64,000 bases of DNA, taken from the NCBI RefSeq assembly GCF_002994745.2, contig NC_037093.1:42388384-42452383 (forward strand). Direction: 5' to 3'. Position 1 is the first letter of the stretch; each line of letters starts with the position of its first letter. Position numbers and translations under genes: made by a program. Below are positions 44,298-63,137 of the stretch, in pieces. Source of the stretch: Rosa chinensis. Its lineage: Eukaryota > Streptophyta > Magnoliopsida > Rosales > Rosaceae. The notes beneath the pieces are model-generated. The model did no database searches. It was not told the origin of the DNA and worked only from the letters and a program-made list of their open reading frames with translations.

Positions 44298-44848
44298 GTG
44301 GCGGAAACCCATATATGCCATATACAAAAATTATCTTTAGCTAAATTCAATTTACTATGTAGAACGAAAATCATTTTTTAAATTCACCAAAGACACCTTT
44401 ATACTCTTCAATTTAATCAATGTAATTCAAATCGTCATTTTTCATTGTTAAGTGACATGATCCATTTTGTTAAGAATAATCTTTTGAGTTTTGACTAATG
44501 ATGTAAGAAATGTGGAATTGAGAATTATTTTTTTGTGCAAGTGTTAAAAGTTAGGGGAATAATATTCACACTCTATTGTTTCTTTTTTTAATATCTTAAC
44601 ATCATTTTACAACTATATTTCATTTTTTGATATTTAAAAAAAAAAAGCATCAATACTAAAGAAAACTATAGATTGTGGAAATTTTTTTTTTTTTTGTCAA
44701 CTTATAGATTGTGGATTGAGAATTGTAAATTAAAGAGTAAATTTCACAATTCAAAATAGCAGAAAAAATATGGATTTACTGTTAATATTGTACGAGAAAC
44801 AAATATAATTACGGTTTTGAACTAAAAAAGTTTAGACAAAGAATTGTA
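44298..44848. other. Intergenic DNA
   Basis: AT-rich, no gene or repeat recognised. Confidence 0.4.
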
Positions 44849-44932
44849 GGGCTTTACTCCGTAGGGAGCCCTTCCAGAAATTCTCGAGGGCTTTAGGGAG
44901 TGGTGGCCATGACTCAATCAAGGCCTTTTTTC
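44849..44932 (-). pseudogene. U4 snRNA relic (3' part)
   Basis: The minus strand carries GGCCTTGATTGAGTCATGGCC, then CCCTCGAGAATTTCTGGAAG (Sm-site region), then GGGCTCCCTACGGAGTAAAG, matching the last third of the U4 gene at 48735-48887 with a few changes. The 5' two thirds are missing. It lies 0.4 kb beyond the 3' end of the intact O-methyltransferase gene. Confidence 0.75.
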
Positions 44933-44986
44933 TTTTGGTCTGAGGCTCAATCGAGGTCTAAGTTTAGCATCTTTGACAACGAAGCA

Positions 44987-45045
44987 CACTACAAGAAAAA
45001 TAGGGGCATTGCTTAATCAGGGGCATGCTTAATCAGGGCCGTACA
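44987..45045 (+). mobile_element. CACTA-like terminus, fragment
   Basis: It reads CACTACAAGAAAAATAGGGG followed by the doubled subterminal phrase GCTTAATCAGGG. The opposite end is not in the neighbourhood, so this is a remnant. Confidence 0.5.
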
Positions 45046-45331
45046 CTCTCCTGCCTGCTTCATATCGTAACTGCAAGATTAGCCGACTAGCTAGCTATTT
45101 TTTCAATCCAAGATATGTTGGACTCATAGTTTTAGTTGAAGGCTCAAATTAATCTCACAGTATATACATCCCTCACTTAACAATTCACTTCCCATCAGAA
45201 TTGGGATTGAAAGAGATCAGCACAAATTGTATTATTGTCCACACAAAAACTACAAAGAGAAACCAGCAAGTACAACTTGAACAATACAATACATGAAATT
45301 TAGGACTTCAAACCCCACAAGTTTTCAAACA
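45046..45331. other. 3' flank of the O-methyltransferase gene
   Basis: Non-coding. The stretch 45045-45290 follows the same order as 56450-56730 (CCTGCCTGCTTC, AAAGAGATCAGCACA, AACTTGAACAAT), so it belongs to the duplicated snRNA and O-methyltransferase unit. Confidence 0.6.
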
Positions 45332-46678
45332 TTATGGAAAAGCCTGGATAACAGATTGGACAGCATTAATAGGTGTGACCGTGTGTCGGCTAAAGCCAGC
45401 TTCCCCAATAACATATCCCCATTCCTTCAAGGTCCTCTCTTTGCCAGTGCTAGTATGGGCCATCATCACCATGTCTAGCATCAATCTCACATCGGTTAGC
45501 TCGTCTTTGATCTCATCTTCTTCAATAACAGCTTCCAGAATTATCACCTTCCCTTTGTCCTCAGGAATTGCTTCCTTACATTTCTTCAGTATACGGATGC
45601 ACTCCTCATCTCCCCAGTCATGAAGAACGGACTAAATACACATAAGAATAATCAAAATTTATACAAATAATTAATGCTAGATGCCAACGATATTTTCTAA
45701 ACCGCATTACCAGATCACATAGATGATGTAGCATAGGCATTTATGTTATAAGCAGCTTAAGTATCTTTAATTTAAAGAATCACACAAACAGTAAGTTAAT
45801 GACGGATTAAAAAAAAAATGAAAAAATGAAGTTACAAACATATATAAGGAAAGGTAGCTTGACTACTAAGCAAGATTGAGGACAGTATATTTACTAACTT
45901 TGATAATTGCAGCATCGGCCTTTGGAATACAATCAAACATGTCTCCTCCAACATTCTCCACTCGATCACTCTCCTCAGCAACAGATACAACATGAGGAAG
46001 ATCAAAATTGATCCCTCGAGTAATCCAAGCACAGGCCTTAACCAAGAAGCCTAAAGTAGTTCCATTACCACCACCCACATCCACTATGGTCTCAATCCCA
46101 TTGAAAACCTCTAAAGAACTGTCAATCAGTGCAGGCAGTGCCAAGCATGCATCACAAGCCATTGCTTCATTGATAAGCTCGCTGTGACCGGGATTAGCCG
46201 CTGCAAAGCTCCATATATCCTCACCATGTACTGCCTCAAATGCGGGAGTACTGGTGCCATTGCCTAGAATACGGGCACTAAGGCAATGCCATGGTGCTAG
46301 CATTACCGGACTACTCTCCAGCAAAATCATTGCAGCCATGCTATTTTCACCGAATTTTAGTAGGCAGCGGGACAAAGGTGACTGTGCATAACTTTTGGGG
46401 TCTGATGGGATTTTGGGTTGGACTTCTTTGAATATTTTCTGGTGAACTAGGAACCTCATGATGCGGTAAAGGGAAGAAGGATCGCACTTAAGAGTTTTGG
46501 ATAGCTCTAAGAGTGTCATGGGGCTTCCATGGCTTTCGATAGCATCAGCTATTCCAAGCTCAATGGCACATTTTACCACTGCAATTTTTGAAAACCCAAG
46601 CACATAATTCCACACTTCCACTTTGGCACGTTCCTCTCCTTTCTCTTCCAAAGTTGGCTTTCTTTGTGTATGTTCCAT
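45332..46678 (-). CDS. Class II plant O-methyltransferase (two exons)
   Basis: Exon 1 is 45899-46678 and exon 2 is 45332-45631; the intron has GT at 45898-45897 and AG at 45633-45632, phase 0, giving 359 aa, normal for the family. The N-terminal half is the dimerisation domain (AIELGIADAIESHG, LYRIMRFLVHQKIF). The methyltransferase fold follows: the SAM-binding glycine loop IVDVGGGNGTT, FDLPHVVSVA, GGDMFDCIPKADA, then across the splice LHDWGDEECIRIL, where His is the catalytic base, and the C-terminal LMLDMVMMAHTSTGKERT and VQSVIQAFP. It transfers methyl from SAM to a small phenolic, alkaloid or indole hydroxyl in the cytosol; the substrate cannot be read from sequence, though the end resembles acetylserotonin/reticuline 7-type enzymes. 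An upstream ATG at 46753 is in frame, but 46678 gives the usual length. Confidence 0.88.
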
Positions 46679-46713
46679 CTTTTTCTTGGCAAGTCCCAAG
46701 CTCCTAGCATGTG

Positions 46714-46722
46714 ATATATACA
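46714..46722 (-). promoter_or_regulatory. TATA box of the O-methyltransferase gene
   Basis: The minus strand reads GTATATATC about 36-44 bases before the chosen ATG. If used, transcription would start just upstream of 46678, which favours that start over 46753. Confidence 0.5.
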
Positions 46723-46753
46723 ACTGGAGTGAACATTTTGGGTAATCCATCAT

Positions 46754-47162
46754 TTTTAATGGTTTTTAATTTATCCAACTGCTCCTTTCTTTAGGAATTG
46801 TTTCCAATCATGGATGCGACCCACTGGTCATTTTGTAATTTGAGCACATTTTTATCACGTATAACACAGGCCCCCTTATTCTAAATATACTAAAGCTCCT
46901 GGCCTCCTTCCACTGTTTATCACTGTTCAAAAAATGAAGTACCGGTTTTGCTCTTGCTACTTTCTTTTTTTACAGGGTGCCATCCGTCTATAATTCATCA
47001 ATTATTGTCGGCACAATCTTATACATATTAACATATATTAAAGCTGCTAGAGCACTGTAGACTGTTCATTGAAAATACTGTTTTGCCCTTGTTTTAATTA
47101 GGCACAACAGACAAACCCCATCACATCTTGGATTGAAGATCTGAAATAACCAGCACTACTGA
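46754..47162. other. Upstream flank of the O-methyltransferase gene
   Basis: AT-rich, no gene recognised. Confidence 0.4.
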
Positions 47163-48114
47163 CAAGGACTAAAAAATCGAAATTTTCAGCGATATTTCGC
47201 CGAAATTTTCGGTATTTTCATTTGTCGAAATTTCCGTAACCTTCCGTGTAGATTTCGATAGATATTTTAGAAATTTCCCGAAATTTCAGGAAATATCCTG
47301 ATTTTGGCGATATTTTGGATATTTTTTTGGAACCTTCAAAGGATATTTTGGAAATTTCCCGAAATTTCCGGAAATATCTCTATTTTGGCGATATTTTGCT
47401 AAATTTTGGGTTTTTTTTTTTGGGAACCTTCCATCTCTTCCCAGTTCCCACTCTACCACTCATTCTCCACAAGGTCACCAAGGCTCAAACTTTGGTCACT
47501 CCATTGCCCTTTGAGAGCCTTGGCCAATTCTGCTGCACATACACTCATGTTATCTTTGCACCATTCTAATATATATTCATTTAGCTTACAAATCTGAAAA
47601 CTTAGGTACATGTCCAATCAATAACTAACATAGAACAATCTATTACATTTTGAATTTTATTTACCAAATTTTCAAAAAATTTACAACAACATTTCAATTT
47701 TGAACTTGTATAAATAGGGTTTAGGGTTCCACTCATTCCTTGCACCGAAAGAACAAAGTTTCTTTCTTCTTTCTTCTTTCTTTTACTACTTCTTCACTCT
47801 ATAATTATGGTAAGTAATAAGTTAATATTATTAACCATTTAGTTTTTATTGTTATTCAGTATTTACCGTTTCATCTTAAATTATTACAAATTACTATATA
47901 ACAATGTTTATTCAAGGTTTTCTTTTCATATATAGTAGACAACTGATAAAACAAACATATCCAAAAGTTTCACTTAAAATTTCCATATTTTTCTTCAAAT
48001 TTCCATCATTTTTCTTTATTTTTTATCGAAATTGATATATCCTCGATATTTCAGTCGAAATTTCTGTTTTCAGGACCATCGATATTTCATCGAAACTCGA
48101 TATTTTAGTCCTTG
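47163..48114. mobile_element. TIR element with CAAGGACTAAAA ends (952 bp)
   Basis: The left end CAAGGACTAAAAAATCGA pairs with the right end (inverse CAAGGACTAAAATATCGA), and both sides contain repeated GAAATTTC/GATATTTC units (47170-47400 and 47990-48100). I could not find a clear target duplication. Inside, 47711-47813 looks like a core promoter and leader (TATAAATAGGG, pyrimidine-rich leader, ATG directly followed by GTAAGT), possibly a captured gene start. Confidence 0.65.
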
Positions 48115-48470
48115 ATATGAACAATAATATCAGCTAACAATACTTGGCAGAATGGCCTACAATTAATAATAATAATACAATAAACTGTTTATCTAACTAA
48201 AATCGAAGCAAAAACAAAGCATCATCTGATGTGGATCGCACTTGTTTGAATACTACCCTACAAATCTAGCATGGGAAGAAGTAATTAGTTGTTAGTCTAA
48301 AATGAACTATAAATCATATTTACCAAGATTTGAATCGGATTTGACAAGGGGCAAATTGTGGTGTAAAAATGTTTAGAAATCATACGACCAAGATTCGAAC
48401 CAGATTTGGTTTTGGTAGGGCATGCCTAGTGCGCACACACATAACTCGACAGCGGCACACAAAACTCGAC
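48115..48470. other. Intergenic DNA
   Basis: No gene seen; the last 60 bases hold a partial copy of the adjacent 165 bp repeat. Confidence 0.4.
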
Positions 48471-48800
48471 AGGCATCTTGGTAGGGCATGCCTAGTGCGC
48501 ACACACAAAACTCGACAGGCAAAAGCTATCGCAGAGATAATATCAAAAACGTTTAAAATAAGAATTGTAGGGCTTTACCCCGAAGGGAGCCCTTCCAGAA
48601 ATTCTCGAGGGCACTGGGCTCACACATAACTCGACAGGCATCTTGGCAGGGCATGCCTAGTGCGCACACACAAAACTCGACAGGCAAAAGCTATCGCAGA
48701 GATAATATCAAAAACGTTTAAAATAAGAATTGTAGGGCTTTACCCCGAAGGGAGCCCTTCCAGAAATTCTCGAGGGCACTGGGCTGAACCCAGGCCCAGG
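48471..48800. repeat. 165 bp tandem duplication containing the U4 3' end
   Basis: 48471-48635 and 48636-48800 are almost identical. Each contains the last about 50 bases of U4 (3' stem-loop with Sm-site region) and its downstream flank. The distal copy (48570-48620) is therefore an orphan U4 tail downstream of the real gene. Confidence 0.92.
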
Positions 48801-48887
48801 AGGGGGTTTGGAAATAGTTTTCAACCAGCAATAGACGCGCCTCGGTTAGAACCTCATTAGCTGCGTCATTGCCCCAAGCGCAAAGAT
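48735..48887 (-). ncRNA. U4 spliceosomal snRNA
   Basis: The minus strand begins ATCTTTGCGCTTGGGGCAAT and continues with GCTAATGAGGTTCTAACCGA and GGTTGAAAACTATTTCCAAA, which are stem II, the 5' stem-loop and stem I partner that pair with U6 in plants. The 3' part has an Sm-type site (GAATTTCTGG) and a terminal hairpin (GGGCTCCC...GGGGTAAAGCCC). The length of about 153 nt is normal for plant U4. U4 keeps U6 inactive until spliceosome activation. USE and TATA lie upstream (next entry), so it is probably expressed. The 3' end is estimated to within a few bases. Confidence 0.93.
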
Positions 48888-48910
48888 GCTCCAAATTGTA
48901 TCTTAGCTCC

Positions 48911-48962
48911 TCTTTTATTTGTTCTAGAGGACTTAGAACTGGTGCGTTTACCGATGTGGGAT
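48911..48962 (-). promoter_or_regulatory. U4 promoter: USE and TATA
   Basis: The USE reads ATCCCACATCGG on the minus strand (48951-48962), a perfect fit to the plant snRNA element RTCCCACATCG, at about -64 to -75. The TATA-like AAATAAAAGA is at 48911-48920, about -24 to -33. Plant RNA polymerase II snRNA genes use this spacing. Confidence 0.9.
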
Positions 48963-48984
48963 TGGAATTGGAAAGGAGCCACAC

Positions 48985-49620
48985 GTCTGTTCGGCTAATG
49001 CCAGCCTCCCTAAAAACGTAACCCTGTTCCTTTATCGAGGGCCTCCCATTCCTGGGCTAGAATGAACCATCGACTTTCACCATGCTGGCATCAATTTCGC
49101 ATCTGTTAGCTCCTTACAATTCTAAAGAGTACGTAATGTCATTGCTTTCACTTTGTCCTCAGGAATAGCTTCCCTACAATTCTAAAGAGTACGTGATGCA
49201 CTCATCAATCGTCTCCCCAGTCATGAATCACCTACCTTTTAGTATTTACTTGATTTAAAACGTATTCCAAGGTTGTATATAATATGCTATGTTAGCTAGA
49301 GAGATACATGGCAGTTGATGCGTTATTTAACAGGTGGTTATAAGAAAAGCGCACATTAACCATTATTCATGATTATGATCTGAAATTCCTTGACTACTCT
49401 GAAAAAGAACGATAACAACTTGTTGGCATTGCAGCAACAGCCTTGGAAGCAGAATCAAGATTTAGCCTTTGGATCACAGTACACTCCTTGGCTGCACTAG
49501 AGTCTGATGAGGATGAAGTTGATGCCTCTAATACTACAAGGACAGGGCTTTACCACAAAGCTTTAAGTAGCTAGTTCTATCACCACCACCGACATCAACA
49601 ATGGGATTGTGATGGTCACT
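48985..49620 (-). pseudogene. O-methyltransferase relic 2
   Basis: 48985-49240 aligns with exon 2 of the intact gene (the TCGGCTAA-GCCAGC end, then GGTTAGC-like, TTTGTCCTCAGGAAT, TCTCCCCAGTCATGA), and 49385-49620 retains exon 1 bits including the plus-strand complement of the VDVGGG loop (ACCACCACCGACATCAACA). Many indels are present, and a local repeat (ACAATTCTAAAGAGTACGT) occurs twice near 49117 and 49172. It sits directly upstream of the U4 promoter. Confidence 0.8.
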
Positions 49621-49792
49621 TACCTGAGAGAAATGCTTTCTACATTAGGTGATGGCCACTAGAGGGGCTACTCAACTATACAACTTCCTTTACCATAGTT
49701 CCCTCCCTTAACTCCCTCCACTTACAAATCACAGGCCTGTTGGTGGAGGAGACCAGCCGCACAAAATATGAATATGTTGGAAAATTTAATAT

Positions 49793-51444
49793 GGGCAAAC
49801 TACTGTTTAGTCCCTGAAGTATGGCCTCGTCCTCGTTTCAGTCCCTGCCTTTCTAATTTAATCCCAAAAGTCCCTGAACTCACAATTTTTAGTCCAACCG
49901 GTCCATCTCCTCCATTCTCTCCGGTTGCTGGCTGACGTGTCAGTTATCTACTTGCCAGCTCAGCGCCACATAAGACCCCGATTTTATAAAGTGACGAGAA
50001 TGCCCCTACTTCAGTTTCTTCCAAAATCTTCTCTATCTTCTTTCTTATCTTCTTTCTCCCTCTATCCAAGTCTTCGATACAAGGAGAAGGGTGATGGTAC
50101 AGAGGTGGACAGAGGTGGGTTGACCGGTGCTAGTGCCGGTGCTAGTAGGTGGGTGCGCCGACGATTATGATGGTGACAGTGGTGAGCCGCAGCAATTGTT
50201 GAAGTTTGTCGACCATAGAGAGAGAATATGAGATTCAGTTTCTCTCTCATCCATCCCTCTCGTAAAAAAACCCAGAATCATAAAGCGTCCAGAGACCAAA
50301 ATGTGTGATGATGATGATGATTACTCAGAGAAGAGAGGATGGGAGGATGGGGTGAAGGAGGAGGAGGTCGTGGGTGCCCAGAGAAAATTTGTGGGTGTTG
50401 ACCGCAATGGCGCGTGGGCTACTTCTGGGCATCGCCAGACAACAGAGAGGCTGCTGGTGGATCGACGGAGGTCGCTGAGCACGATAGTGGTGCAGGTGAG
50501 GCACGTACGGCAACATTGATTTCCAGGTTGTGTCACACCATGGCATGCCGCCTGGCCTCGACGGCGCTGTGGGAATGCCCGGACTGCTCCTTAATCTCCG
50601 ATGATGCTACGGCGACATTCAAGCTTGCTTTTTCTTCTTTTGTTGTCTTGGTCATTCTTTGTTCTGCAGCAATAGTAGTGAAGAAATGGTTCTTATTTTT
50701 GTTGAAAAAGCCCAAGTTCTTGATCAAGGTTATGCAAGAATTGAGGGATTTTGATTCAAGAAATTGGTTTTTTGTTGCAAAAGGTGAAGTGGTTTCTTGT
50801 GGGTTTTGTTTTTTGTATCAGAAAAAAACTTCAGATTTGACATATTCAACATGGCACTTTGAATGATCTGGGTCTTCGTCTTTCTTGCTTTCTGTTTGGT
50901 TTTTGAACGATCTGGATATTCAACATGGCACAAATCACCGTTGCTCTTATTTGATTGAGTCCCCCATTTGATTTCATCTTCTTGTTCCGATTGTTCAATT
51001 TTTCACACATTTTACTCCATTTGTTTCATAAACACTCAAATTTGTTTCTGCTTTGTTCTTTTGAAATCTGATTTGGATCCATCTTTGGTGTGAAATCGTT
51101 GTTCTGACCATCAACCCCAAATCACCATATCCAAACAAGACCTTAGGGTTTTGGGCAAATTTGAGGATGTTTTTGGATGGTGAGCTTGGTAGTGGTGGAT
51201 TTTGGGTGTAAAGAGAAAGAAGGAAGAACAGGGGCATTCTCGTCACTTTACAAAATCGGGGTCTTACGTGGCGCTGAGCTGGCAAGTAGATAACTGACAC
51301 GTCAGCCACCAACCGGAGAGAATAGAGGAGATGGACCGGTTGGACTGAAAATTGTGAGTTCAGGGACTTTTGGGATTAAATTAGAAAGGCAGAGACTGAA
51401 ACGAGGACGAGGTCATACTTCAGGGACTAAATAGTAGTTTGCCC
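49793..51444. mobile_element. MULE-type element inside the 5' LTR (1652 bp)
   Basis: The terminal inverted repeats of about 215 bp begin GGGCAAACTACT. The 9 bp duplication atttaatat is at 49784-49792 and 51445-51453. The interior has GC-rich, gene-like sequence (about 50060-50880); the longest plus frame is 50414-50866 (150 codons) with one hydrophobic segment, which I do not recognise. It could be a captured gene piece. Confidence 0.92.
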
Positions 51445-54214
51445 ATTTAATATTAAGTATTTTATTTTCCATAATTTGTGGATAAATAATTAGTGAAAAG
51501 GTGTGAAGTTGAATATTTGTAAATGACTACGTTATGAGAAATCATGGCTGATCACAAAAGATAACTTTTGGTGAAAAGTCATCTCTCCTTCAAAAGTCAC
51601 TTTACATCTATAAAACACTTGCTAAACCATATTCTGGAAATAACTTCTTGAATTCATTTTTCCTCCTCTCCTTTTACATATGAGTTTTCCTAGTGTCATG
51701 AAAACTAATTGTGTCTTTTCAAGAGAGAGTTCATACACAATCTAAGTTCGCTGTTCTTAAGGTTTGGAGTGCTACTACCGCAAGAAGAAGGTCGTTGTAT
51801 CTTGGGAGACGTTTGCCATTAAAACCTTGAAGCACCGATGAGGAGGCAATTTCGTCTTAAGGACGTAGAATCAAGTTCTAGACTCGACCATATTATTTAA
51901 GGTTTTTCTAACTTTTATCGGTTTTATTTTGGTTAGATTTATCTGCATAAATGTTTCTTGATTTTCTTATAAATATAGCAATTAGACCAACATATTTACC
52001 AACAATCTTAAGACGAAAACTTGTTGTTATTTTGGTTTAATTGCAATGTTTAAAGTTTGTTCTAACTTTTCTTATGAGTTTGATTGTAGTAGATCTCCTG
52101 ATCATGTTCGTCTAAAACGTCAGAACATATAGCTATGCACGAGACTGAGTATATATGATCTGTGCTAAATTAGATCTAGCTATAATACATGTGTTTAATT
52201 AAGTAGAAATTGATTCAATGTTTCATGCATGGTTGCATGACCTGATACTTGATTGCTTGAATATTTAATAATTAATTAGAAACCAAATGTATGATCGAGT
52301 TGCTGCAATCCTTGATCAATTATAGTACATGAATGCGTGCATCTGTCTGAACATAGAAGAGAATGGATGCCACCTCTAGTCTTTGACTGGGTAATCCAAA
52401 AGTCGCAGCTAGCGTTTAGATTTTAAATTGAAACCATATATATCTTTCATAACCGCAGATTTGAAGTTTCAAGGTAGATATCTGCAATATCGTTCTGGGA
52501 GTGTATATTTATGTCTACATGCATATTAAAGGAATCTGTTATTGGCTGATTCTATAACAGAAGAATGAGATTAAGAATTCTGGTTGGCAAAAGTGTAAAT
52601 CCGTAAATGCACATAAATGAATACTATGAGAAAGTGGTTATCATGCATAGTTTAAAATGTCATCAAATATATCATTTTGATCTGACAAAGAAACCACCAT
52701 TGCCAGCCATGTGTTCTCGTTCTCATAACCGCTATGTTGAAGTATACATGTTTTTATATGACTATGCCAATTAGTCACACATACCCACTGCGGCAACTAC
52801 ATTGCCTGTTGCAATGTGAAGTGATCTGTTAAACTGGATTACGATAATGTGAGCAGTAAAACGTCAACAGTACGTTATGAGTTTGTTCTTAACTGAAAAT
52901 GTTCTTCTATGAAATGTTCATAAGATTTCTAGACCCAAGAGGTGAAAGATAGAAAACGGGTATATCGATTGCCATTGTATTTCAAATAGAATGGATTAAT
53001 CGCAGCAACTTAAAAGATTATTGAATCCATCCATGATTGCATGAAATTCATGCACATGTACAGAATATCATGACATGGAAAATGATTAATAGTACTTCCT
53101 AAGACAGGAAGTAACTAGATAACCATGTGAGTATGCCATGAAGCAATGTCGACCGGCATGTTGATCTATCATGGTGCTGACATGCAAATTCAGATTCCTA
53201 CTTCTTGTATAAAGAAGTTAACACCAATAATAATGCAAAAATTGTGGGGGTCGTTTGTCACCCAATCTATACAAGTAAATGTACACTTGAAGATAAGGAA
53301 TACATTCTTTCTCTAGAGAAGAATAGAAGAGAATGGAGAAATGAGACACCTTGTAAGGTATAAAAAGATTTTAAGCGTATACCTTAAAATGTGGGGGTGT
53401 GTGGAAAAATGAATTTTAGTCAACACAAGTAGTAAGTCTCGACCAATTGGTGAATCGAAGACTTGACTTTATAACAACTACTCTCCAATGAAATGAGTTC
53501 ATATATTGAGTTTGATTTGCAATATAGTTATAGTCAAACAAATGGGCCCAAATTACTTGTATCGAAGTTTGACTAGAGAGGAAGTTTATCATCAAAAGGA
53601 ATGGGATGTAAGCCTAAAACATAAAGTCACCACTATGGATACCCAACCTAGTTGATTGGAGATCCCAAGATCTAGGTTCAAAGGGACAACTAAATGGTGG
53701 ATGATTTTGAAGTAGCATTGTGGAGATAAATCTCCTTCCCATGTCCTATGATGAAGAAACAATGCATAATGAGTTAGGGTAAGCTTTGCTTTTAATGGTT
53801 CCTATAGCTTGAATTTTCAAGTGGGGTATAGAAGGATACTCTTCATAGGAAGCCATCTATATGAGTGTGAAATGAGGCCGTTTCTATGAGAATTTTTGAA
53901 GGCTGAATTCTCTAAAACACTCATGAATACTGGGTGTTGTCCATGGCTGGAAGGACACAACCGTAGAACTAGATGTGTATGAAAAGATATTGTGTGAATA
54001 CTATTGTCTTGGTTTACATAAATGGCTGAATAGTTCAAGACATCACGTTCACTAATTAGCTAGTAAATCCGATGGTATTTCACTAAGGAAAGTTCAAAGC
54101 CAAAAGCTACTTATCCCAATGCGATATCATTTCAACCGAACTCTCTCATATGTCCGCGCGCGTCGTCTTTTGAAATTTTCCTTTCTAACTAATTATTTCA
54201 TCCATGTGGGGGAT

Positions 54215-54783
54215 TGTTGGAAAATTTAATATTAAGTATTTTATTTTCCATAATTTGTGGATAAATAATTAGTGAAAAGGTGTGAAGTTGAATATTTATA
54301 AATGACTACGTTATGAGAAATCATGGCTGATCACAAAAGATAACTTTTGGTGAAAAGTCATCTCTCCTTCAAAAGTCACTTTACATCTATAAAACACTTG
54401 CTACACCATATTCTGGAAATAACTTCTTGAATTCATTTTTCCTCCTCTCCTTTTACATATGAGTTTTCCTAGTGTCATGAAAACCAATTGAGTCTTTTCA
54501 AGAGAGAGTTCATACACAATCTAAGTTCACTGTTTTTGAGGTTTGGAGTGCTACTACCGCAAGAAGAAGGTCATTATATCCTGGGAGACGTTTGCCATTA
54601 AAACCTTGAAGCACTGATGAGGAGGCAATTTCGTCTTAAGGACATAGAACCAAGTTCTAGACTCGACCATATTATTTAAGGTTTTTCTAACTTTTATCGG
54701 TTTTATTTTGGTTAGATTTATCTGCATAAATGTTTCTTGATTTTCTTATAAATATAGCAATTAGACCAACATATTTACCAACA
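54215..54783 (+). repeat. 3' LTR of the non-autonomous element
   Basis: Direct repeat of 49775-52004 minus the MULE. It contains an uninterrupted copy of the target site used by the MULE. Confidence 0.95.
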
Positions 54784-54879
54784 GAATAAACCTTCCCTAA
54801 GCTATAAATTAAAGGTACGTAAGTTAACAGTCAGCTGTGTCTTTGATGTAACTTGAACAATAACAGCTTTGATGCATGA

Positions 54880-54965
54880 TTTGATCTGCTTCTTCAATAA
54901 CAGCGTCTACAATTATTGCATTACCTTTGTTCGTGGTAATAGCTTCCCTCCAATTATCTAGAAAG
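54880..54965 (-). pseudogene. O-methyltransferase relic 3 (exon 2 fragment)
   Basis: The minus strand translates to REAITTNKGNAIIVDAVIEE, matching KEAIPEDKGKVIILEAVIEE of exon 2 in the intact gene. No other part of the gene is next to it. Confidence 0.7.
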
Positions 54966-55149
54966 CAGTTGAGCAGCAAGTAAGAGGTAGAGTTGGAGAG
55001 ATCACACTAGCATAGTGAAATAATAGCTGAGTATGTAATAAGTACACTTCGATCAAGCGATGAGGTTATCAAACATTAATCAATAATTATACATATATGA
55101 CATAAATTTCTTGATTAATATTTAAAATAAAAGGGCCATAAATTAAAAC
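54966..55149. other. Intergenic stretch
   Basis: AT-rich, nothing recognised. Confidence 0.4.
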
Positions 55150-55766
55150 ATAAATGAACTCTGATGGTGCTTGGAAGCATGGTTCTAATGTGGGGGGATA
55201 TGGTGCGGTTTTTCGAGATTACAGGGGTCATGTTCTTGGTGCTTTTTTTTTTTTTTTAGAACATGTTTTTGGTGCTTTCTCTGCTAATCTTGAAATTCCT
55301 AGCTCAGTTGCAACAGAAGTGATGGCGGTCATCAAGGCCATTGAACTAGCTTGGGTTAGAGACTAGAAGTATATTTGGTTGGAAGTGGATTCCTCTCTTA
55401 TCCTTGACTTTCTTCGCAGTCCTCATTTAGTTCCTTGGATGTTTCGCATCAAATGGCGCAATTGTTTGTATCGTATTTCTCAAATGAATTTCCGCTCATC
55501 TCACATATTTCGAGAAGGTAATCAAGTTGTTGATGCGTTAGCAAATTTTGGTGCTGATTCTACAAGCCAAGCTCTACCCTTTATACTTGCACATTGTAAT
55601 AGAGACCACTTGGGTCTTCCGAACTTTCGTTTTCTTTAGTTTCATGTTTCTTTTTTCTGATTTATGTTGGAGGTTTTGGTTTTGGTCCCCCTCTTTTGTA
55701 CTCTGTTTTCCTTTTCTTAATTTAAGAGGATAGGAAGGATCTCTTCCTCACCTAAAAAAAAAAAAC
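55150..55766 (+). pseudogene. LINE 3' fragment with RNase H and poly-A
   Basis: The frames 55154-55366 and 55379-55639 carry the plant LINE RNase H: NSDGAWKHG (first Asp), GGYGAVFRDYRGH, VATEVMAVIKAIELAW (Glu), EVDSSLIL (Asp) and a late FREGNQVVDALAN. A stop at 55364 splits it. A T-rich insertion disrupts the first frame, and the A run at about 55755-55766 is the tail. The element is 5' truncated. Confidence 0.82.
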
Positions 55767-56084
55767 CAGTCCACCATCCACCTCAACTATTGTCTCAGCG
55801 TCACACTAAAGCTCACCTCTAAACAACATTCAATCACTGCAATCCTTGTATCATAGGTTGCCGGTTCATTAGTTGGTAAGCATTCTGTGTGAAGAATTAG
55901 CCCAAAATAACCGAACATGAACCAAACGAAGCATTAACAATGGATAAATCAAGGTTTGTCGTATTGCAGTGTTTATTGTTCTCCTCCATCACTTTTAGCG
56001 GTTCTTATCCTTCAATTATTTGTATTAAAGTTTGCTCGGTTCAGGCCAAACAATATTGTCCCTAAGGGATCCCATCAAAGGCAG

Positions 56085-56140
56085 CCATGACTGAAACGAC
56101 GAGGCCTAAGAGGGGGTTTAGAAATAGTATCCCTTCTTTG
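56085..56140 (-). pseudogene. U4 snRNA relic (central part)
   Basis: The minus strand reads ACTATTTCTAAACCCCCTCT then TAGGCCT, resembling the central single-stranded region of U4 (ACTATTTCCAAACCCCCTCC). It lies downstream of U5, in the same relative place as the other U4 copies. Confidence 0.5.
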
Positions 56141-56311
56141 GTTGCAGTTCTATGTAAGAGAGTATAATTTCTTCACTTAAATTACATTTGTTTCTTAATT
56201 TCAGATTTCATTAGGACAATTTGTATGCAATTGTAGTGCAGCACTGCAGCTAGCTAGATGTAAACATATTCGCCTCAACAGAAGGATCAAACATTGCACT
56301 GACCATTGTAT

Positions 56312-56431
56312 GGGCACCCAGAGAGGTGCACCCTTCCAAAAAAATTGGCGTATGCCATTTGAAGCGCCGCGCACACGGTATTCTTTAGTAAAAGGCGAAA
56401 GAATAGTTCGCGATGTGCTCAACGCATGGCT
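56312..56431 (-). ncRNA. U5 spliceosomal snRNA, copy 1
   Basis: The minus strand starts AGCCATGCG and contains the invariant loop I in CTATTCTTTCGCCTTTTACT, followed by AAAGAATACCGTG (the other side of stem I). The Sm site is AATTTTTTTGG, and the 3' hairpin GGGTGCACC...GGGTGCCC closes the RNA at about 120 nt. U5 loop I holds the exon ends during splicing. A 3' box matching CA-N(3-10)-AGTNNAA follows at 56294-56308 (CAATGGTCAGTGCAA on the minus strand). Promoter elements are present. All the expected parts are intact. Confidence 0.93.
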
Positions 56432-56457
56432 CCGTGCTTTTGCTCTTACCTGCCTGC

Positions 56458-56520
56458 TTCTTTATAGATGTGACTCTCTGATACTAGCAAGCTGACCGTG
56501 ACCTTTTAAATGTGGGATTG
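56458..56520 (-). promoter_or_regulatory. U5 copy 1 promoter: USE and TATA
   Basis: TATA (CTATAAAGAAG) lies at about 56458-56468, near -30. The USE (AATCCCACATTT) lies at 56509-56520, one or two changes from RTCCCACATCG. The spacing of about four helix turns fits RNA polymerase II snRNA genes. Confidence 0.82.
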
Positions 56521-56744
56521 GTCATGTGTACCATTTAACTTACTAACCTAATAAGCTATGATTCTTGTGCAATTTTCTGCCTGCTTAATTCGCTTCCAGT
56601 CAGGACTGGGTTAGAAAGAGATCAGCACAGCTATCCTTGTTGTTAACCATACGAGAAAAAAAACACAAAGAAAGACCAGTAGGTTTTTTTTTTTTGGCAT
56701 AAACCAGTAGGTAACTTGAACAATTGAGACAAACCACAAGTTTT
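56521..56744. other. Shared flank between U5 and O-methyltransferase relic
   Basis: Collinear with 45150-45290 beside the intact O-methyltransferase gene. No gene seen. Confidence 0.6.
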
Positions 56745-57470
56745 CAAGTTTTCATACATTATGGAAAACCCTGAATAACAGATTGGACAGCATTCCTTCA
56801 ATCTCCTTTCTCTGCTAGTTAGTATGGGCCATCAACCTCACATCTATTAGCTAGCTTGTCTAGTTTGATCTCATCGTCATCAATAATAGCATCCACAATT
56901 ATCAGCTTCACTTTATCCCCAGGAATTACTTCCCTGAAATGTTTCAGTATACGAATGCACACTCCTCGTCTCTCCAATGATGCAGAACCCACTACAATTC
57001 ACATAAGCAAAAATCAAACACTACCCTTTACTATACACGAGCGTTACATGTCCGTTTGAGCATCAAGAAAAAAACTACAAGCCTGGGGGAACATATTTTC
57101 TGGACTTATTAGCAGCATACGATATTACGATGCATGTAGAGTTCCCGGCCAAGCTAATAATTGATCATATTCTGCTAATGATGCTAATGAAAACTGGTTG
57201 AAAAACATCTATTAACAGCATCATCAACTAAATGATCATAATTAGAATATACGTGAGGTTCCTAGCTTTGATTATTAACCAAAGATCAGGACAGCAAATG
57301 AAACTAAAAAATTGCATATACGGTGATCATATCCAAGCCAAACTATATACTGATCATTATTATTGCAGCATCAGCCACCAACATTCTCAACTCGATCATT
57401 CTACTTAGCAACAGACACAACAGGAGGAAGATCGAAGTTAATTCCTCGATTATTCCAAGGACAAGCCTTA
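56745..57470 (-). pseudogene. O-methyltransferase relic 4
   Basis: 56745-57000 matches exon 2 (CATTATGGAAAA-CC-TGAATAACAGATTGG at the 3' end, through to the splice region), with a deletion of the middle. 57360-57470 matches exon 1: the minus frame reads RGINFDLPPVVSVA, as RGINFDLPHVVSVA in the intact gene. Indels and stops make it non-functional. Confidence 0.85.
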
Positions 57471-57631
57471 TAACCACGATGTAACTTCGCATCATCATTT
57501 CCTAGTGGAATTAATTTAAAGATAAACCGCCAATAATATTTTAAGTCCTGCGGTTCCATATTTTTTGGTTCATTTAGCAGGATACAGACCGCTTCATTAA
57601 ACCAATAGCGAGAAAAAACTGAACTGAACTT

Positions 57632-57826
57632 GGTAGGGTGCGCCAAACCTTGCTGTAGTGCAACGCAAGGATGACTCGCGTGAGCATTGCAGCAAGCTAC
57701 AGTAATAAACCCACCCCTTTAAAAAATAAAATTAATATCGTGTGAACCATTGGTTCACGTATCAGATATTAAACTGATAAGAACAGATACTACACTTGAT
57801 CTTAGCCAAAAAGCTGAGAAAGGTAT
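57632..57826 (-). ncRNA. U2 spliceosomal snRNA
   Basis: The minus strand begins ATACCTTTCTCAGC and holds GGCTAAGATCAAGTGTAGTA, including the branch-point recognition sequence GTAGTA, then TCTTATCAGTTTAATATCTG. Stem IIb reads GTGAACCAATGGTTCAC, a perfect hairpin. The Sm region is ATTTTATTTTTTAAAGG and the 3' end is a hairpin region closing at CACCCTACC, about 195 nt, normal for plants. U2 pairs with the intron branch site. Compared with the usual plant form, stem I has two changes (CAGCTT for CGGCCT) that still allow pairing. It is probably functional. Confidence 0.95.
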
Positions 57827-57850
57827 GCTTACTCCACTTGTGGGAATTGT

Positions 57851-57902
57851 CTTTTATATTCTCATTCACCTCCTTGAGTTTCACTTCTATTGATGTGGGA
57901 CT
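57851..57902 (-). promoter_or_regulatory. U2 promoter: USE and TATA
   Basis: TATA (GAATATAAAAG, 57851-57861) lies at about -25 to -35. The USE (AGTCCCACATCA, 57891-57902) lies at -65 to -76, one base from the consensus. The layout matches the U4 gene at 48.9 kb. Confidence 0.92.
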
Positions 57903-57953
57903 CAACAGCTGCTGACAGAGAATAGCTGGCTAACCATTAGACACAAAGACAAT

Positions 57954-58446
57954 GGCTGTGTTGGACGGCATCAATTCTGCTTTGGAGCACAATTTCACAA
58001 AGGTTATTGTGGAATCGGACTCACTAGGAGTGATCACAGACATCAAATCAAAGAAAAAGAGTACAGTTTGGGAGACTTACCCTTGAATTGAAGAGATTAG
58101 AAGAAGAAGCCTCCAGTTCTCTGAAATATGCTGGGATTCGATTCCCCGAGAAGCGAATTCAGTCGTTCACACTGCGGCTTCGCTTGCCAAAGGGATGGTG
58201 GGTCTAAACAGATGGGCAAATACGCCACCACCATCCTTACTTCGAGTACTGAAGACTGATGGCCTTCCATGCCCTCCGCTAGAAGGCAATTAATCAGCTG
58301 CTTTCAATCTTGCTTTTGTCCGGGTAACTCTCTGGTACCTGGTTCAGTTTGAATTAGGTGGAGACGTTAACTCTTTTCTAATTTGTTTGTAAAACTGTTT
58401 TGGGCCTTTTCTTGGCTCTCCGGAACCATCTGTTCAACCAAAAAAA
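57954..58446 (+). mobile_element. 5'-truncated LINE fragment with RNase H end
   Basis: It is flanked by a 22 bp exact duplication (57932-57953 and 58447-58468, core CCATTAGACACAAAGAC). It encodes the end of a LINE RNase H (LEHNFTKVIVESDSLGVI, REANSVVHTAASLAKG) with one stop, then a 3' UTR and an A run at about 58439-58446. It is inserted just upstream of the U2 USE. Confidence 0.9.
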
Positions 58447-58468
58447 AACCATTAGACACAAAGACAAT

Positions 58469-61339
58469 ATATAACACCCATGTCTCTCAGGGTTAACACC
58501 TCCGGCATTAAAAAACTAGGCCAAGAATGACACAACAACTGACTATCTAAGTTCTTATCCCACATATTAGCCTTTTGGTAATCAAGAGAGAATCCATGGC
58601 TTTAACCATCTTCTTTCATCTGCAAATAATCAAACCGAAGGAAGGAACAGCTGAGCAACTGTGTTTAGCTGTTTAGATTTTAGATTTATTTCAACGGTAA
58701 GAATGTCAACTTTCTCCGAGCTATGCTTGTGTTATAGTATATAATCCATTTTCCTGCATATAGTCATCATGACAGTCAACTACAATAGTCATGAGGGCAA
58801 AGTTCAATGTCCCTTAGAGATAGTACGGAATTGAAGCTGGACAAATTTAGGTGCCTTGTTCATATATTTGCAAAAGCAGCACACACCTGACAAGCCCTTT
58901 TTTGTTTCTTAGTTCCTATATAGAGCAGAGGAATCTTTTTATGCAGTTCTGTTTTAGGTGCTCAACTACTCATTGAGGAAGAGTTAATTCTGTGGTGCTC
59001 CAATTTTGTTACAGCAGCTGCACGTTCCTATAAAAGTGAGAGCCTGCTCGCTACTGCACATACATTTTATTTTCTTGTGACTTGAAGCAGTTAATAACTC
59101 GATCTACATATTGATACTTGAATAACCGTGTCCTCATCTAGAATTATTTGGTCTTTCTATTCTGACCAGCAAAAGTCGTACGCATTCCATTCTTTTCTCT
59201 TTACAGACCTATGAAAAGTGATCGATAGAAAAACTATATGAGCTAACTGAGCCAGAATGACAAACTGGTCTCAGCTCGTTTAGATTTTAGAACTCTTACA
59301 TGTCCATGTAAAAATGGAAAGAGGGGAACCAAAACTGCATGACAGTAAAATTTTGATACAGAATAGAAAGGGGATTCCTGAATTCACGCATAAGTACAGA
59401 CGTACAGTTAAAAGGGGACAGTATCATGACGTTTCTGATAGGTTGAGATACTAAAGCATATTTTCAGGTTTCTGGAAGATATGGAACAGCTACGATCTCT
59501 TGAGCTGACTCGCTTTCAGTGTTTGAATCAACCTAGTTATATAGGATAAAATTAGACTTAAGATGACGAGCTCCCAAATTAGATGCCAAATAATGCTAGA
59601 TCAATATGCTTCAGTTTCTAAATGAATGTTTAGCATTCAGAGTATCCCTATTTCCAGATATGCTTCAGTTGCTAGGAAGCAATTTCATGTCCCATTGTCC
59701 AGATATGCATCAGTCGAATATAGTTATCTAGGTGGACAACGACTCAGACGCAGTGGAATAGCGATTTCATGCAAATGTTGAAGTGTATAACCATTAATTA
59801 GGTGTTTCACTTAATAGCTCCTCAACCTTAGAAAAGAACTACCTTAAAACTTTGCCAGGATCTGTATGAACACTCGAGCTCCAAAACTCGGAGCGCAGCT
59901 CTTCTTTTAGGACTCACTAGAGATGGCATGCTTAGTTAAGCTTGTAGCGCCCTTGCGGAAATGAATTCCAATGCAGTAACAGTGTGCCATTAGAAGGCTC
60001 AACAAGAACAGTTCTAGTGCAATAATTATGCAAATCAAGACCAAAGTAGTTGCTCATACATGTGAAGTTAGGTTTGGTTGCAACTTTAAACCATCCACAA
60101 GCAAAACTTACATATCTAAACTAGATATCCTTAGAAGACCAGAACTGCATATTAAACTAAACAAATATCGCAAATATAATGTCATAATAGAATGAGTAAT
60201 GACTGTAATGCTAGGTGAAATAGATACGTTGTCTCTTGCTTATCACATAAAATAATGAATAACCAAGCCCTGGAGTCTTCCATAAGTGAATAACCTGAAG
60301 GATGTGAACTTGCACAGTGTGATACATAACCTTTAGAAGCAGAGTCAAATGTTCATCACTCTTGCAAAGCGACCAACATTCAAAACAAAATCAATGAAAG
60401 TTGATTTTCCACCTAATACAGAAAAGACTTTGGATCTTATAACAAATGGCCAAAAACTCAACCGCAGCATACTTATCTTGAATAGATAAAGTGGTCAAAT
60501 AACCAATAACAGTTATCCAGTGTTGAAGGTAAGTGCTTGCCAACCAAACTTTACCACAGAAAGCTGAAAAGTTAAAAGTTTTCTTTATTAATCATTAGTA
60601 AATTGAAAACTAATAGAAGGTGAACATTTTTATACATATACCTTTAAAAGAAATACAGAAAGGAGTAGTCTGTTGAGTTTTCATTTCTATTCCTAAGTTG
60701 AACAGCCCCAAGTGCAAAGATTGTTTTAATCCAAGTCTTTGCTCTCTCTGTGGATTGTATCTAACCACTAATTTCATTATTTATCTTTCTGCAGGAAACA
60801 AACATAGCCAACCAACTTCGAACCTTGATTTGACACTCCAATTTCATGTGAGGGCTACACAAGGACCGAAAATCAGTGAACTTGTATATCTGGTTGCATT
60901 AATAAATGAGTACTCCCTTGAAGGTCCAATTAATTTTTAGAATTGGACGACCGTTAGTGTCTGTTCTGCATGACTCTGGAATGTTATAGCTAAGGAGCGG
61001 ATTTCAGGGTACCTCCATAGCGGAGCTGGTCACTGGCTACAGGTTTCTTTCCTACCGGACCGGAGGAGGCCGAGAATGTTATGTCAAAAGGACCAACGAC
61101 GATGAAAAAGGAGGAGTAGGAGCGCTATGCTCAAAATAGAATGAGAATGATTACGAGATAGAATGGATCTCTGTTATGAACAACAATGACTAGCCATATG
61201 TTAATATCTGTAATCAAGAACAATATATCTCATCTCTTCACATATTCAGAACAAAAATATACTAAACATAATGCAACAAGAGCAAGGGAAAATCAACTTT
61301 GTGGTAAGCAGCCCCACTGTAGTAACTTGAACTGGACTT
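58469..61339. other. Intergenic DNA with old duplicated segments
   Basis: No gene recognised. 59130-59240 and 59335-59420 resemble 13795-13905 and 19350-19445, and 59875-60110 resembles 26040-26240, in the same order, so this region is a diverged copy of the sequence that hosts CACTA 2 and Copia 2. A TATA-like CCTATAAAAGTG occurs near 59029 without a gene behind it. The frame at 60698-60940 (80 codons) has no recognised domain. Confidence 0.5.
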
Positions 61340-61432
61340 GGTAGGGTGAGCCAAGCCTTGCGGTAGTGAAAGGCAAGGATCACATGCGTAAGCCCCATTG
61401 CGCCCCAATAGCAGGCCACTGTGGTAACCACT
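61340..61432 (-). pseudogene. U2 snRNA relic (3' half)
   Basis: The minus strand reads GATCCTTGCCTTTCACTACC then GCAAGGCTTGGCTCACCCTACC, matching the 3' hairpins of the U2 at 57632-57826. A good 3' box (CAAGTCCAGTTCAA) follows. The 5' half with the branch-point sequence and Sm site is missing, so it cannot work. A USE-like ATCCCATATCGG is at 61636-61647, where a full-length gene would need it. Confidence 0.8.
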
Positions 61433-61762
61433 CTCCCATCTTCAAACATATGCTCATGTTTATCTGGTATGGAGGACTATTTGTATAGGCTTCTTGGTTT
61501 CATTTAACATCACATAGGTGATAGGTGACACCAACAGTTACTAAATTCTTGTTGAACTTTGTACATTCATTCCAATCCAGTATTGCTTATGCAACAGAAC
61601 TCAGTACGTCATAATTGGACTGCTGATTGTCTTCGCCGATATGGGATCTGATGTGGTTTTAACATCAAGCATTATACTGTTCAAACAACAAACGAACCTT
61701 CGAAGGGATTATAGATTTTACTTCAATTTAGTAACACACAAGCATTGATAACTTCAATCTGA

Positions 61763-61884
61763 GGGGCACCCACAGAGGTGCACCCTTCCAAAAAAAATAG
61801 GCATACGCCATTTAAAGCGCCTCACACACGGTATTCTTTAGTAAAAGGTGAAAGAATAGTTCGCTCTATGCTCAACGCATGGCT
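61763..61884 (-). ncRNA. U5 snRNA, copy 2 (loop I variant)
   Basis: Same layout as copy 1: 5' AGCCATGCG, stem I, Sm site ATTTTTTTTGG, 3' hairpin GGGTGCACC...GGGTGCCCC. Loop I reads CTTTCACCTTTTACT, so the first base of the invariant GCCUUUUAC is A (complement of base 61849). It keeps a USE and TATA, so it may still be transcribed. Whether it works or is a decaying copy cannot be told from sequence. The 3' box is weak. Confidence 0.85.
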
Positions 61885-61914
61885 TCGTGAGCATTGTAAC
61901 AGTTATGCTGCTTC

Positions 61915-61966
61915 AACTTATACCTCTCGTACTTGATAGTTTCTCTTCTACAGGCAATGTGGGATA
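61915..61966 (-). promoter_or_regulatory. U5 copy 2 promoter: USE and TATA
   Basis: TATA (GGTATAAGTTG) lies at about 61913-61923. The USE (ATCCCACATT) lies within 61955-61966. The same 16 bases (CAATGTGGGATAAGTA) occur again at 62021-62036, a second USE-like copy 66 bp further upstream. Confidence 0.78.
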
Positions 61967-62050: not shown

Positions 62051-62876
62051 TGATGTAGTTGTTTGGCTCCAAAACCAGTTGGCGTGCAAACTGTCTCTTT
62101 TGAGCGTGTGTGCGGGCGTGCCAGCACCGTGGGGTGCAGTCGTCGGGGGAGTCCCTTGATCTGACTTCTTCTTCAAGTGTTGTGGACGAGGAGAGCACCA
62201 ACCTCGCCACAAGGTTCTTTTCTAGCCTTCTGAGAAAGGACCTCTTGCCTTACGGATAAGGACTTTGGATGTGATCTCTTCGCGTCACCGAATCGATACT
62301 CAACGTTGTAGGCTGAGCAGAGCAATCACTGGGAAGTTTGGAGAAAGCACGGGTTTCGCTAAAGAGTGACTTTAGCTTCGCTGGGTCGCGAGGGCGTTAC
62401 CCTTGCTTCGCTGGTTGAGAGAGTCTCGGTGGCAATGGTACTAGCAGTCGGCTCTTGGAGAGACTAGGACTGGAAGTACGGTCGCCGGGTTGATCTGGTG
62501 ATGCTGACAGTCGGCTCTTGGAGAGACTAGGACTGGCGCGCGGTCACCGGGTTTCAACGAGGTTGAAGGTTTGCTCCGGGGAGGCTTTGTAATCGCTGGG
62601 ATTGATTGATTTGAGAGAGGTCATTTTCTGTCCTTGAAACCTGGTATTTATACTTAGGGTTTCGACTGTTCCTTGCTATAGAAAGATTATTGATTGAAGT
62701 TTCCTATTCAATCTCTGCTACTTGACTCCAATAAGGTTTCGTTTTCCTTATGGATTACAGAATGGGCGAAGCTGTAACCCAAACCCAAGTAGGCTTATTT
62801 TTGGGCCGCAGGAAACGGCCCGTTGTGCTAAATCCACTAAAGGATCTTGCCAAAATTACTTTTGGGCTCAAACATT
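62051..62876 (-). repeat. 3' LTR of a Gypsy-type retrotransposon (826 bp)
   Basis: On the minus strand it runs from TGTTTGAGCCC to ACTACATCA. The next inner bases (62877-62891) are the purine tract GGGGCCGGGGGGCAA. A TATA box on the minus strand (GTATAAATACC, near 62644-62652) supports the orientation. A 63 bp tandem repeat (CAGTCGGCTCTTGGAGAGAC at 62445 and 62508) lies inside. The interior and the other LTR continue past the window. The Gypsy class is inferred from the GC-rich tract and the antisense ORF, since no pol domain is visible. Confidence 0.75.
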
Positions 62877-62891
62877 GCCCCCCGGCCCCAA
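62877..62891 (-). other. Polypurine tract
   Basis: The minus strand reads GGGGCCGGGGGGCAA directly before the LTR start TGTTTGAG, the expected plus-strand primer position. Confidence 0.75.
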
Positions 62892-63137
62892 AAACAGGCC
62901 CGCGAAGATGTAACTGATTGAAGGGACTAAAACGACACGCCGATTGCTTGAAACGATATCATTAATGAGGGTTGCGTCCCTTCGCTTGCGAAAATGCCTT
63001 TCTGTCGTATCGTTTCCCTCACAAAATTTCTTATTTAAAACCCGCAGCCACTTCAGACCTGTCACATCAGAAACTCTTTTAGTTCCTAAACCCAGAAACC
63101 CTCTTACTGCCAACACCTTCCTCACAGAAACCCAGAA

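What the first reader, a model, noticed from the sequence alone, without database searches (positions are those of the whole stretch)
44849..61966. Cluster of U4, U5 and U2 spliceosomal snRNA genes on one strand
Within 17 kb on the minus strand I find a full U4 (48735-48887), U5 (56312-56431), U2 (57632-57826), a second U5 (61763-61884), plus U4 relics (44849, 48570, 56085) and a U2 relic (61340). Directly seen: loop I of U5, branch-point sequence of U2, U4 5' domain, and USE/TATA pairs in front of the full copies. Plant snRNA genes are often dispersed; a mixed cluster of three different species is notable, and protein-only annotation would miss it entirely.
Basis: partly seen in the sequence, partly recalled or inferred. 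Interest (0 to 1): 0.85.

Follow-up and report, generated by a model that had tools for sequence, protein, structure and literature searches.

The report
Mixed spliceosomal RNA cluster in rose
A stretch of rose chromosome holds several different genes for the small RNAs of the splicing machinery, mixed with copies of an enzyme gene that was duplicated along with them; such mixed clusters are common in this genome, so the find is real but is one case of a wider pattern.

Summary
Rfam models find one U4, one U2 and two U5 snRNA genes on the minus strand at the stated places, all above gathering cut-offs, and three relics beat every shuffle. The plant is a Rosa, most likely R. chinensis. The U4 looks intact: 152/152 identical to a U4 70 kb away whose flanks have diverged. 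U2 is a near-intact variant, U5a has an odd promoter and Sm site, U5b is decaying.

First, the snRNA genes alternate with copies of an O-methyltransferase (OMT) gene on the same strand, and non-coding flanks are shared with the next 60 kb: the array grew by tandem duplication of mixed OMT-snRNA blocks, then transposon insertion and decay. Second, it is not exceptional here: of 95 U1/U2/U4/U5 hits above cut-off, 68 lie in 20 clusters (gaps up to 10 kb), 18 mixed, 19 on one strand. Arabidopsis has U1-U4 and U2-U5 clusters (PMC545797), so the kind is known; three- and four-species clusters and the interleaved enzyme gene are variants. Expression is untested.

The parts
48736..48887 (-). U4 snRNA gene, intact; USE 48952-48962, TATA-like box at -32, 3' box with 1 mismatch
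   Evidence: Rfam 107.5 bits; promoter and 3' box; body 152/152 identical to U4 at C6:42507456
56313..56431 (-). U5a snRNA gene; loop I kept, 3' box exact, USE 2 mismatches, USE-TATA gap 41 nt, U run of 7 at the Sm site
   Evidence: Rfam 86.8 bits
57633..57826 (-). U2 snRNA gene, near-intact variant; USE 1 mismatch, TATAAAA at -32, 3' box 1 mismatch
   Evidence: Rfam 173 bits
61765..61885 (-). U5b snRNA copy, probably a pseudogene: loop I G to A, U run of 8 at the Sm site; USE at 61955-61965 and a second USE at 62021-62031
   Evidence: Rfam 69.7 bits
48456..48620 (-). Second copy of a 165-bp tandem duplication holding the U4 3' end (48571-48620) plus 3' flank
   Evidence: 98.8% to 48621-48785
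44824..44891 (-). U4 relic: 3' end plus 3' flank, 91% identical
   Evidence: 0 of 500 shuffles
56060..56128 (-). U4 relic (middle and 3' part, with gaps)
   Evidence: 27 nt at 88.9%; 0 of 500 shuffles
61324..61551 (-). U2 relic, degraded; USE-like element at 61637-61647
   Evidence: 0 of 500 shuffles
60705..60721 (-). Possible U4 5' end (17 nt), weak
   Evidence: E 0.089; 2 of 500 shuffles
45335..46678 (-). O-methyltransferase gene, two open exons (46678-45896 and 45631-45335)
   Evidence: Pfam PF08100 and PF00891; exon 1 100% to P0001
56587..57479 (-). OMT relic between U2 and U5a, with stop codons
   Evidence: 60.6% over 974 columns to 45182-46047
48984..49604 (-). OMT relic directly before the U4 promoter
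   Evidence: 70.8% (48984-49227) and 66.5% (49428-49604)
54880..55841 (-). OMT relic, two short pieces (54880-54955, 55771-55841)
   Evidence: 75.6% and 74.6% over 78 and 71 columns
49775..54783 (-). LTR retroelement between two OMT relics, target duplication TATTC; nested inverted-repeat element at 49793-51444
   Evidence: LTR pair 97.7% over 560 bp; ends
58875..60614 (-). Non-coding block shared with the next array unit (93172-94891 in continued coordinates)
   Evidence: 92.4% over 1753 columns
62060..64000 (.). Start of a second LTR retroelement (to 79003 beyond the window), target duplication GTAGT
   Evidence: LTR pair 89.3%; ends

Best explanation
This is a cluster of Pol II-type plant snRNA genes (U4, U2, U5). 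Each working member is read on its own from a USE plus TATA promoter and cut at its own 3' box. The cluster arose by DNA-level tandem duplication of mixed blocks that carry snRNA genes of different kinds together with an O-methyltransferase gene, all on one strand; transposon insertions and decay of surplus copies followed. It is one of about 20 mixed or plain snRNA clusters in this Rosa genome. The RNAs act in trans as ordinary spliceosomal RNAs and the OMT gene is a passenger or carrier. Shown: genes, promoters, relics, shared flanks, genome-wide pattern. Inferred: transcription, unequal crossing-over as the duplication step, and that U4 (probably also U2 and U5a) is used.
For: Covariance hits; promoters at the standard places; U4 body 152/152 identical to the U4 at C6:42507456 while the 75-nt upstream flank matches at 53 of 79 columns; U5a body 112 matches in 119 columns against 50 of 97 in its 5' flank. 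OMT copies alternate with snRNA genes on the same strand, and one array unit beyond the window repeats OMT then U5. Non-coding flanks are shared at 80-92%. 68 of 95 U1/U2/U4/U5 hits above cut-off are clustered; 47 of 48 adjacent pairs are on one strand; at most 3 pairs in 5000 random placements.
Against: No RNA data. Identity of the two U4 bodies could come from gene conversion rather than selection. U2 (7 changes at columns invariant in 11 others; one hairpin pair lost) and U5a carry unusual changes. In the neighbouring unit the U2 relic itself is not found by blastn with the U2 query; only sequence overlapping its window counterpart is shared. The three weakest traces (U4 5' end 2 of 500, U5 promoter near 45065 9 of 500; short OMT pieces) are not firm. 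OMT was found by tblastn in the loci of this array only, not beside the other snRNA loci tested, so OMT-snRNA blocks explain this cluster, not the other 19.
Confidence: 0.85

Rival explanations
1. All snRNA copies in the window are dead or dying: a pseudogene graveyard at the edge of an array whose working members (U5 at C6:42483611, U4 at C6:42507456) lie outside.
For: U5b decays; U5a has a 41-nt USE-TATA gap and a U run of 7; U2 has changes beside its Sm run; U4 has one mismatch in the 3' box; the U5 and U4 outside have standard promoters and the U4 an exact 3' box.
Against: The window U4 body is identical to the outside copy over 152 nt and has an exact USE. Long gaps of 40-42 nt also occur in 3 of 10 U2 genes tested, and an exact 3' box in only 2 of 25 U5 genes, one of them U5a.
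Confidence: 0.12
2. The mixing is selected: one-strand mixed clusters hold the four Pol II snRNA kinds together for coordinated supply or a shared nuclear site such as a Cajal body.
For: 18 of 20 clusters are mixed, and neighbours differ in kind more often than when kinds are shuffled over the same places (42 against a mean of 34.4; 27 of 5000 shuffles reach it).
Against: Duplication of mixed blocks gives the same pattern and breaks the independence that the shuffle assumes; one block of about 28.15 kb on C5 occurs twice; every tested cluster gene type has its own promoter; no expression or position data.
Confidence: 0.15
3. The copies were scattered by retroposition of snRNAs and met here by chance.
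For: Retroposed copies exist in this genome: three U5 (L062, L063, L066) and one U4 (L008) lack a USE and are followed by A-rich runs.
Against: The window's full copies keep promoters, and relics keep 3' flanks; those retroposed copies are single, outside the clusters; flanks are shared within the array.
Confidence: 0.02
4. The repeats are an assembly artefact.
For: A second cluster on C5 contains a near-exact repeat of about 28.15 kb.
Against: Array copies in the window differ by 5-40%, and inserted elements have clean target duplications.
Confidence: 0.03

Closest known systems
Arabidopsis snRNA gene clusters (Wang and Brendel 2004, PMC545797; section 10 read)
   Same: Different snRNA kinds side by side, each with USE and TATA; explained there by duplication of an ancestral cluster.
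   Different: Arabidopsis: seven U1-U4 and one U2-U5 clusters, intergenic 180-300 nt or under 200 nt. Here three kinds (four elsewhere in the genome), no U1 directly before U4, gaps of 1.2 to 7.4 kb in the window, and OMT copies in between.
Plant Pol II snRNA genes (USE, TATA, 3' box CA(N)3-10AGTNNAA; passages of PMC5079582)
   Same: Promoter parts and spacing as in the other copies tested; 3' box present or one or two letters off.
   Different: U5a has a long USE-TATA gap; U5b and U5a have long Sm-site U runs.
Tandem arrays of plant O-methyltransferase genes (recalled as common; not tested)
   Same: Open copy plus decayed copies in direct repeat on one strand.
   Different: The repeat blocks also carry snRNA genes.

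Membership tests
U2, U4 and U5 spliceosomal snRNA (Rfam RF00004, RF00015, RF00020) | Covariance model match above gathering score over the whole model | tested here: met
   4 of 4 genes, full model length
U2, U4 and U5 spliceosomal snRNA (Rfam RF00004, RF00015, RF00020) | Conserved U5 loop I | tested here: inconclusive
   Met in U5a; in U5b the G shared by all 16 reference copies is A
U2, U4 and U5 spliceosomal snRNA (Rfam RF00004, RF00015, RF00020) | Sm site as in the other copies (rule of 4-6 U recalled) | tested here: inconclusive
   U4 identical to other U4; U5a run of 7 and U5b of 8 against 5 in all 16 reference copies; U2 changed just before its U run
U2, U4 and U5 spliceosomal snRNA (Rfam RF00004, RF00015, RF00020) | RNA is made and assembled with Sm proteins | not testable with these tools
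   No RNA data at hand
Plant Pol II snRNA gene | USE and TATA about 32 nt apart | tested here: inconclusive
   Met for U4, U2, U5b (32 nt each); U5a 41 nt with 2 USE mismatches
Plant Pol II snRNA gene | 3' box AGTNNAA downstream | tested here: inconclusive
   U5a exact; U4 and U2 one mismatch; U5b two
Mixed plant snRNA cluster of the Arabidopsis type | Two or more snRNA kinds close together | tested here: met
   Three kinds within 13 kb; one strand
Mixed plant snRNA cluster of the Arabidopsis type | U1-U4 or U2-U5 pair with an intergenic gap of 300 nt or less | tested here: not met
   No U1 in the window; U2-U5a gap 1201 nt with an OMT relic in it

The most novel reading that the evidence does not exclude
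In Rosa, and perhaps more widely in its family, the genes of all four Pol II major spliceosomal RNAs (U1, U2, U4, U5) have been gathered genome-wide into mixed, single-strand clusters that multiply as units, so that the copy numbers of the four RNAs rise and fall together. The window shows one such unit caught in the tandem expansion of an enzyme gene, which couples snRNA gene number to the growth of a metabolic gene family.
Probability: 0.3. Interest if true: 0.62.

Novelty: new variant of a known kind. Interest (0 to 1): 0.42.

Why it matters
snRNA gene organisation has been surveyed in few plants (the one detailed survey I read is of Arabidopsis). Here mixed one-strand clusters are the main form found in a rose genome. 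That gives a direct way to follow how snRNA copy number and variants change (block duplication, decay, retroposition), and tells which copies need care when snRNA reads are mapped. It also shows an essential RNA gene family duplicated in the same blocks as an enzyme gene.

Tried and rejected
Retroposition as the source of the window copies: rejected (promoters, 3' flanks and shared flanks). Chance relics: rejected for three relics; kept as weak for the U4 5' end at 60721 (2 of 500) and for a U5 promoter trace near 45065 (9 of 500). Short U2 hits elsewhere first looked like truncated genes; most are copies whose conserved 5' part reads N in this tool, so they were compared over the visible part only. 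U2 hairpin as sign of compensatory change: 3 of 4 tested pairs form in the window copy against 4 of 4 in the other 17 copies with the core sequence (4 of 22 copies lacked it), so no support. Decay of U5b at the neutral rate: its body (6 mismatches in 117 aligned positions) matches the 1.7-kb shared block (84 in 1706), but the nearer 5' flank diverged more (22 in 170) and the U2-relic block 14 in 196, so 'neutral' is only roughly borne out. U6 could not be searched genome-wide, nor the OMT protein. Other plant genomes could not be searched with these tools (no relatives held). Hit counts are lower bounds.

Rows dropped: searches used only hits above the gathering score (75 of 79; 95 of 102); one search repeats the pair count without the 7 hits of one copy of the 28.15-kb repeat on C5 (42 pairs, 41 same strand, 36 different kinds). 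One search tested 24 promoters. One search used 25 of 27 U5, 7 of 13 U4 and 10 of 39 U2 hits. One search aligned all 27 U5, 16 of them as reference (identical copies among them). One search used 22 of 39 U2 hits, 11 as reference.

Full report
What is there. Rfam's covariance models find four snRNA genes on the minus strand of the window: U4 48736-48887 (107.5 bits), U5a 56313-56431 (86.8), U2 57633-57826 (173) and U5b 61765-61885 (69.7), the only matches above gathering cut-offs; ARAGORN finds no tRNA. Three relics beat all of 500 dinucleotide-preserving shuffles: U4 at 44824-44891, U4 at 56060-56128, and a degraded U2 at about 61324-61551. The relic at 48570 is the second copy of a 165-bp tandem duplication of the U4 3' end. 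A 17-nt U4 5' end at 60721 is weak (2 of 500).

Where it is. The window is G000:C6:42388384-42452383 of a 515-Mb assembly in 53 contigs. Exon 1 of an O-methyltransferase gene is 100% identical to P0001, whose printed name is cut at '[Ro'; P0003, 89% identical and on a contig of the same length (69,643,165), is named Rosa chinensis. Contig C6 here is 69,635,509 long. I take the species to be Rosa chinensis or very close.

Are the copies intact? U4 is strongest: exact USE, TATA-like AATAAAA at -32, and a body identical at 152 of 152 positions to the U4 at C6:42507456, although the 75-nt upstream flank matches at only 53 of 79 columns. Gene conversion could do this as well as selection. Its 3' box has one mismatch. 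U2 has a good promoter; over the visible 3' part it has 7 changes at columns invariant in 11 other U2s, two of them near the Sm-site U run; the nine other full-length U2s aligned have 7 to 27, L032 (5' part replaced) 5. U5a keeps loop I and has an exact 3' box, but its USE has two mismatches, its USE-TATA gap is 41 nt against 29-33 in the 20 other U5 with a recognisable USE (of 25 tested), and its U run is 7 instead of 5; of its 4 differences at invariant columns 2 are the added U. Gaps of 40-42 nt do occur in 3 of 10 U2 genes. U5b has an A for the G of loop I and a U run of 8; of its 9 differences at invariant columns 3 are added U and 1 is only an extra first base of the match. Its sister U5 at C6:42483611 has no private change at otherwise invariant columns, so the differences between the two lie on the U5b side; U5b differs from it at 6 of 117 aligned positions, near the rate of the 1.7-kb shared block (84 of 1706) and below that of its 5' flank (22 of 170). 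So U4 looks used, U2 and U5a are probable but unproven, U5b is most likely a pseudogene.

Surroundings. Between the snRNA genes lie copies of one O-methyltransferase gene on the same strand: an open two-exon copy (46678-45335; Pfam PF08100 and PF00891) and relics at 57479-56587, 55841-54880 (two short pieces) and 49604-48984. The last ends just before the U4 promoter. A 5.0-kb LTR retroelement (49775-54783, target duplication TATTC, LTRs 97.7% alike over 560 bp) with a nested inverted-repeat element separates two OMT relics.

How it grew. The next 60 kb continue the array on the same strand: U5 at C6:42483611 and U4 at C6:42507456, and no other Rfam match up to E 0.05. In window coordinates continued past 64000, an OMT copy (105305-96211, split by an insertion of about 7.75 kb with CACTACTAG ends) is followed by U5 (95344-95228). 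Shared sequence: 58875-60614 with 93172-94891, 92.4%; 61172-61367 with 94876-95072, 92.4%; 61730-62059 with 95193-95522, 85%; 44899-45431 with 95790-96307, 87.5%; 45429-46866 with 104055-105503, 90%; 48115-48435 with 109134-109420, 80%. The U2 relic is not itself detected in that neighbouring unit by blastn with U2; only sequence overlapping the window relic's 3' end is shared. The window's unit is cut at 62060 by an LTR element reaching 79003 (target duplication GTAGT), after which homology resumes (79004-79208 with 95518-95718, 93%). This is what tandem duplication of mixed OMT-snRNA blocks, then transposon insertion, leaves behind. Unequal crossing-over as the step is inference. OMT was not found by tblastn beside the snRNA loci of other clusters held, so this carrier belongs to this array.

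Genome-wide. Above gathering score there are at least 37 U2, 27 U5, 20 U1 and 11 U4 hits. With gaps up to 10 kb, 68 of 95 fall into 20 clusters: 18 mixed, 7 with three or more kinds, 3 with all four, 19 on one strand. Of 48 adjacent pairs 47 are on the same strand and 42 join different kinds; 5000 random placements never gave more than 3 pairs. Without one copy of a repeat of about 28.15 kb on C5 the figures are 42, 41 and 36. Kinds alternate more than in label shuffles (27 of 5000 reach 42), but duplicated blocks are not independent, so this is suggestive only. Commonest orders: U2>U5 11, U5>U2 10, U5>U4 5. Three U5 and one U4 without a USE and followed by A-runs are retroposed copies, each outside the clusters.

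Comparison. The Arabidopsis survey PMC545797 (passages, section 10) lists ten clusters: seven U1-U4, one U2-U5, and tandem duplications of U2 and of U5. Mixed plant clusters are thus known. Different here: make-up (U2 with U5, U5 before U4, no U1 directly before U4), three or four kinds per cluster, prevalence, and the interleaved enzyme gene. Ten library searches listed no paper whose title or abstract start describes such clusters in Rosa, or of three or four kinds in a plant. Several listings were cut (15 of 991, 20 of 35, 12 of 19, 25 of 26); I opened passages of PMC545797, PMC5079582 and PMC11709435 only; subscription journals are not held, so older cases may exist.

Verdict. It is a partly decayed member of a set of mixed snRNA clusters, tied to an O-methyltransferase array.

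Noticed in passing
L041 and C5:74210782-74289918: Dense plus-strand cluster U1, U5, U2, U5, U4, U2, U1 within about 9 kb, present twice at a distance of about 28.15 kb; 3152 bp compared are identical, but U1 scores differ between the copies, so not identical throughout. Recent duplication or assembly artefact.
   Followed up: partly
window 48785 and 44891; L007 1607; continued coordinate 110070: Truncated U4 copies start at U4 positions 103, 111, 107 and 94, all in or near the central hairpin: a possible recurrent breakpoint. L007 carries its own tandem duplication of a U4 3' part, parallel to the one in the window.
   Followed up: no
L062, L063, L066 (U5), L008 (U4): snRNA copies without USE and followed by A-rich runs: retroposed pseudogenes.
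   Followed up: partly
continued coordinates 96308-104054 (C6:42484691-42492437): Insertion of about 7.75 kb with CACTACTAG inverted ends and a 3-bp duplication inside exon 2 of the neighbouring O-methyltransferase copy; CACTA-type by recall.
   Followed up: no
window 926-9328 and 20289-25039: Copia-type retroelement reading frames, several broken, on the minus strand (by eye).
   Followed up: no
window 34006-34620: Minus-strand open frame with a signal-like start and many PxLPxLPKPELP repeats, no Pfam match.
   Followed up: no
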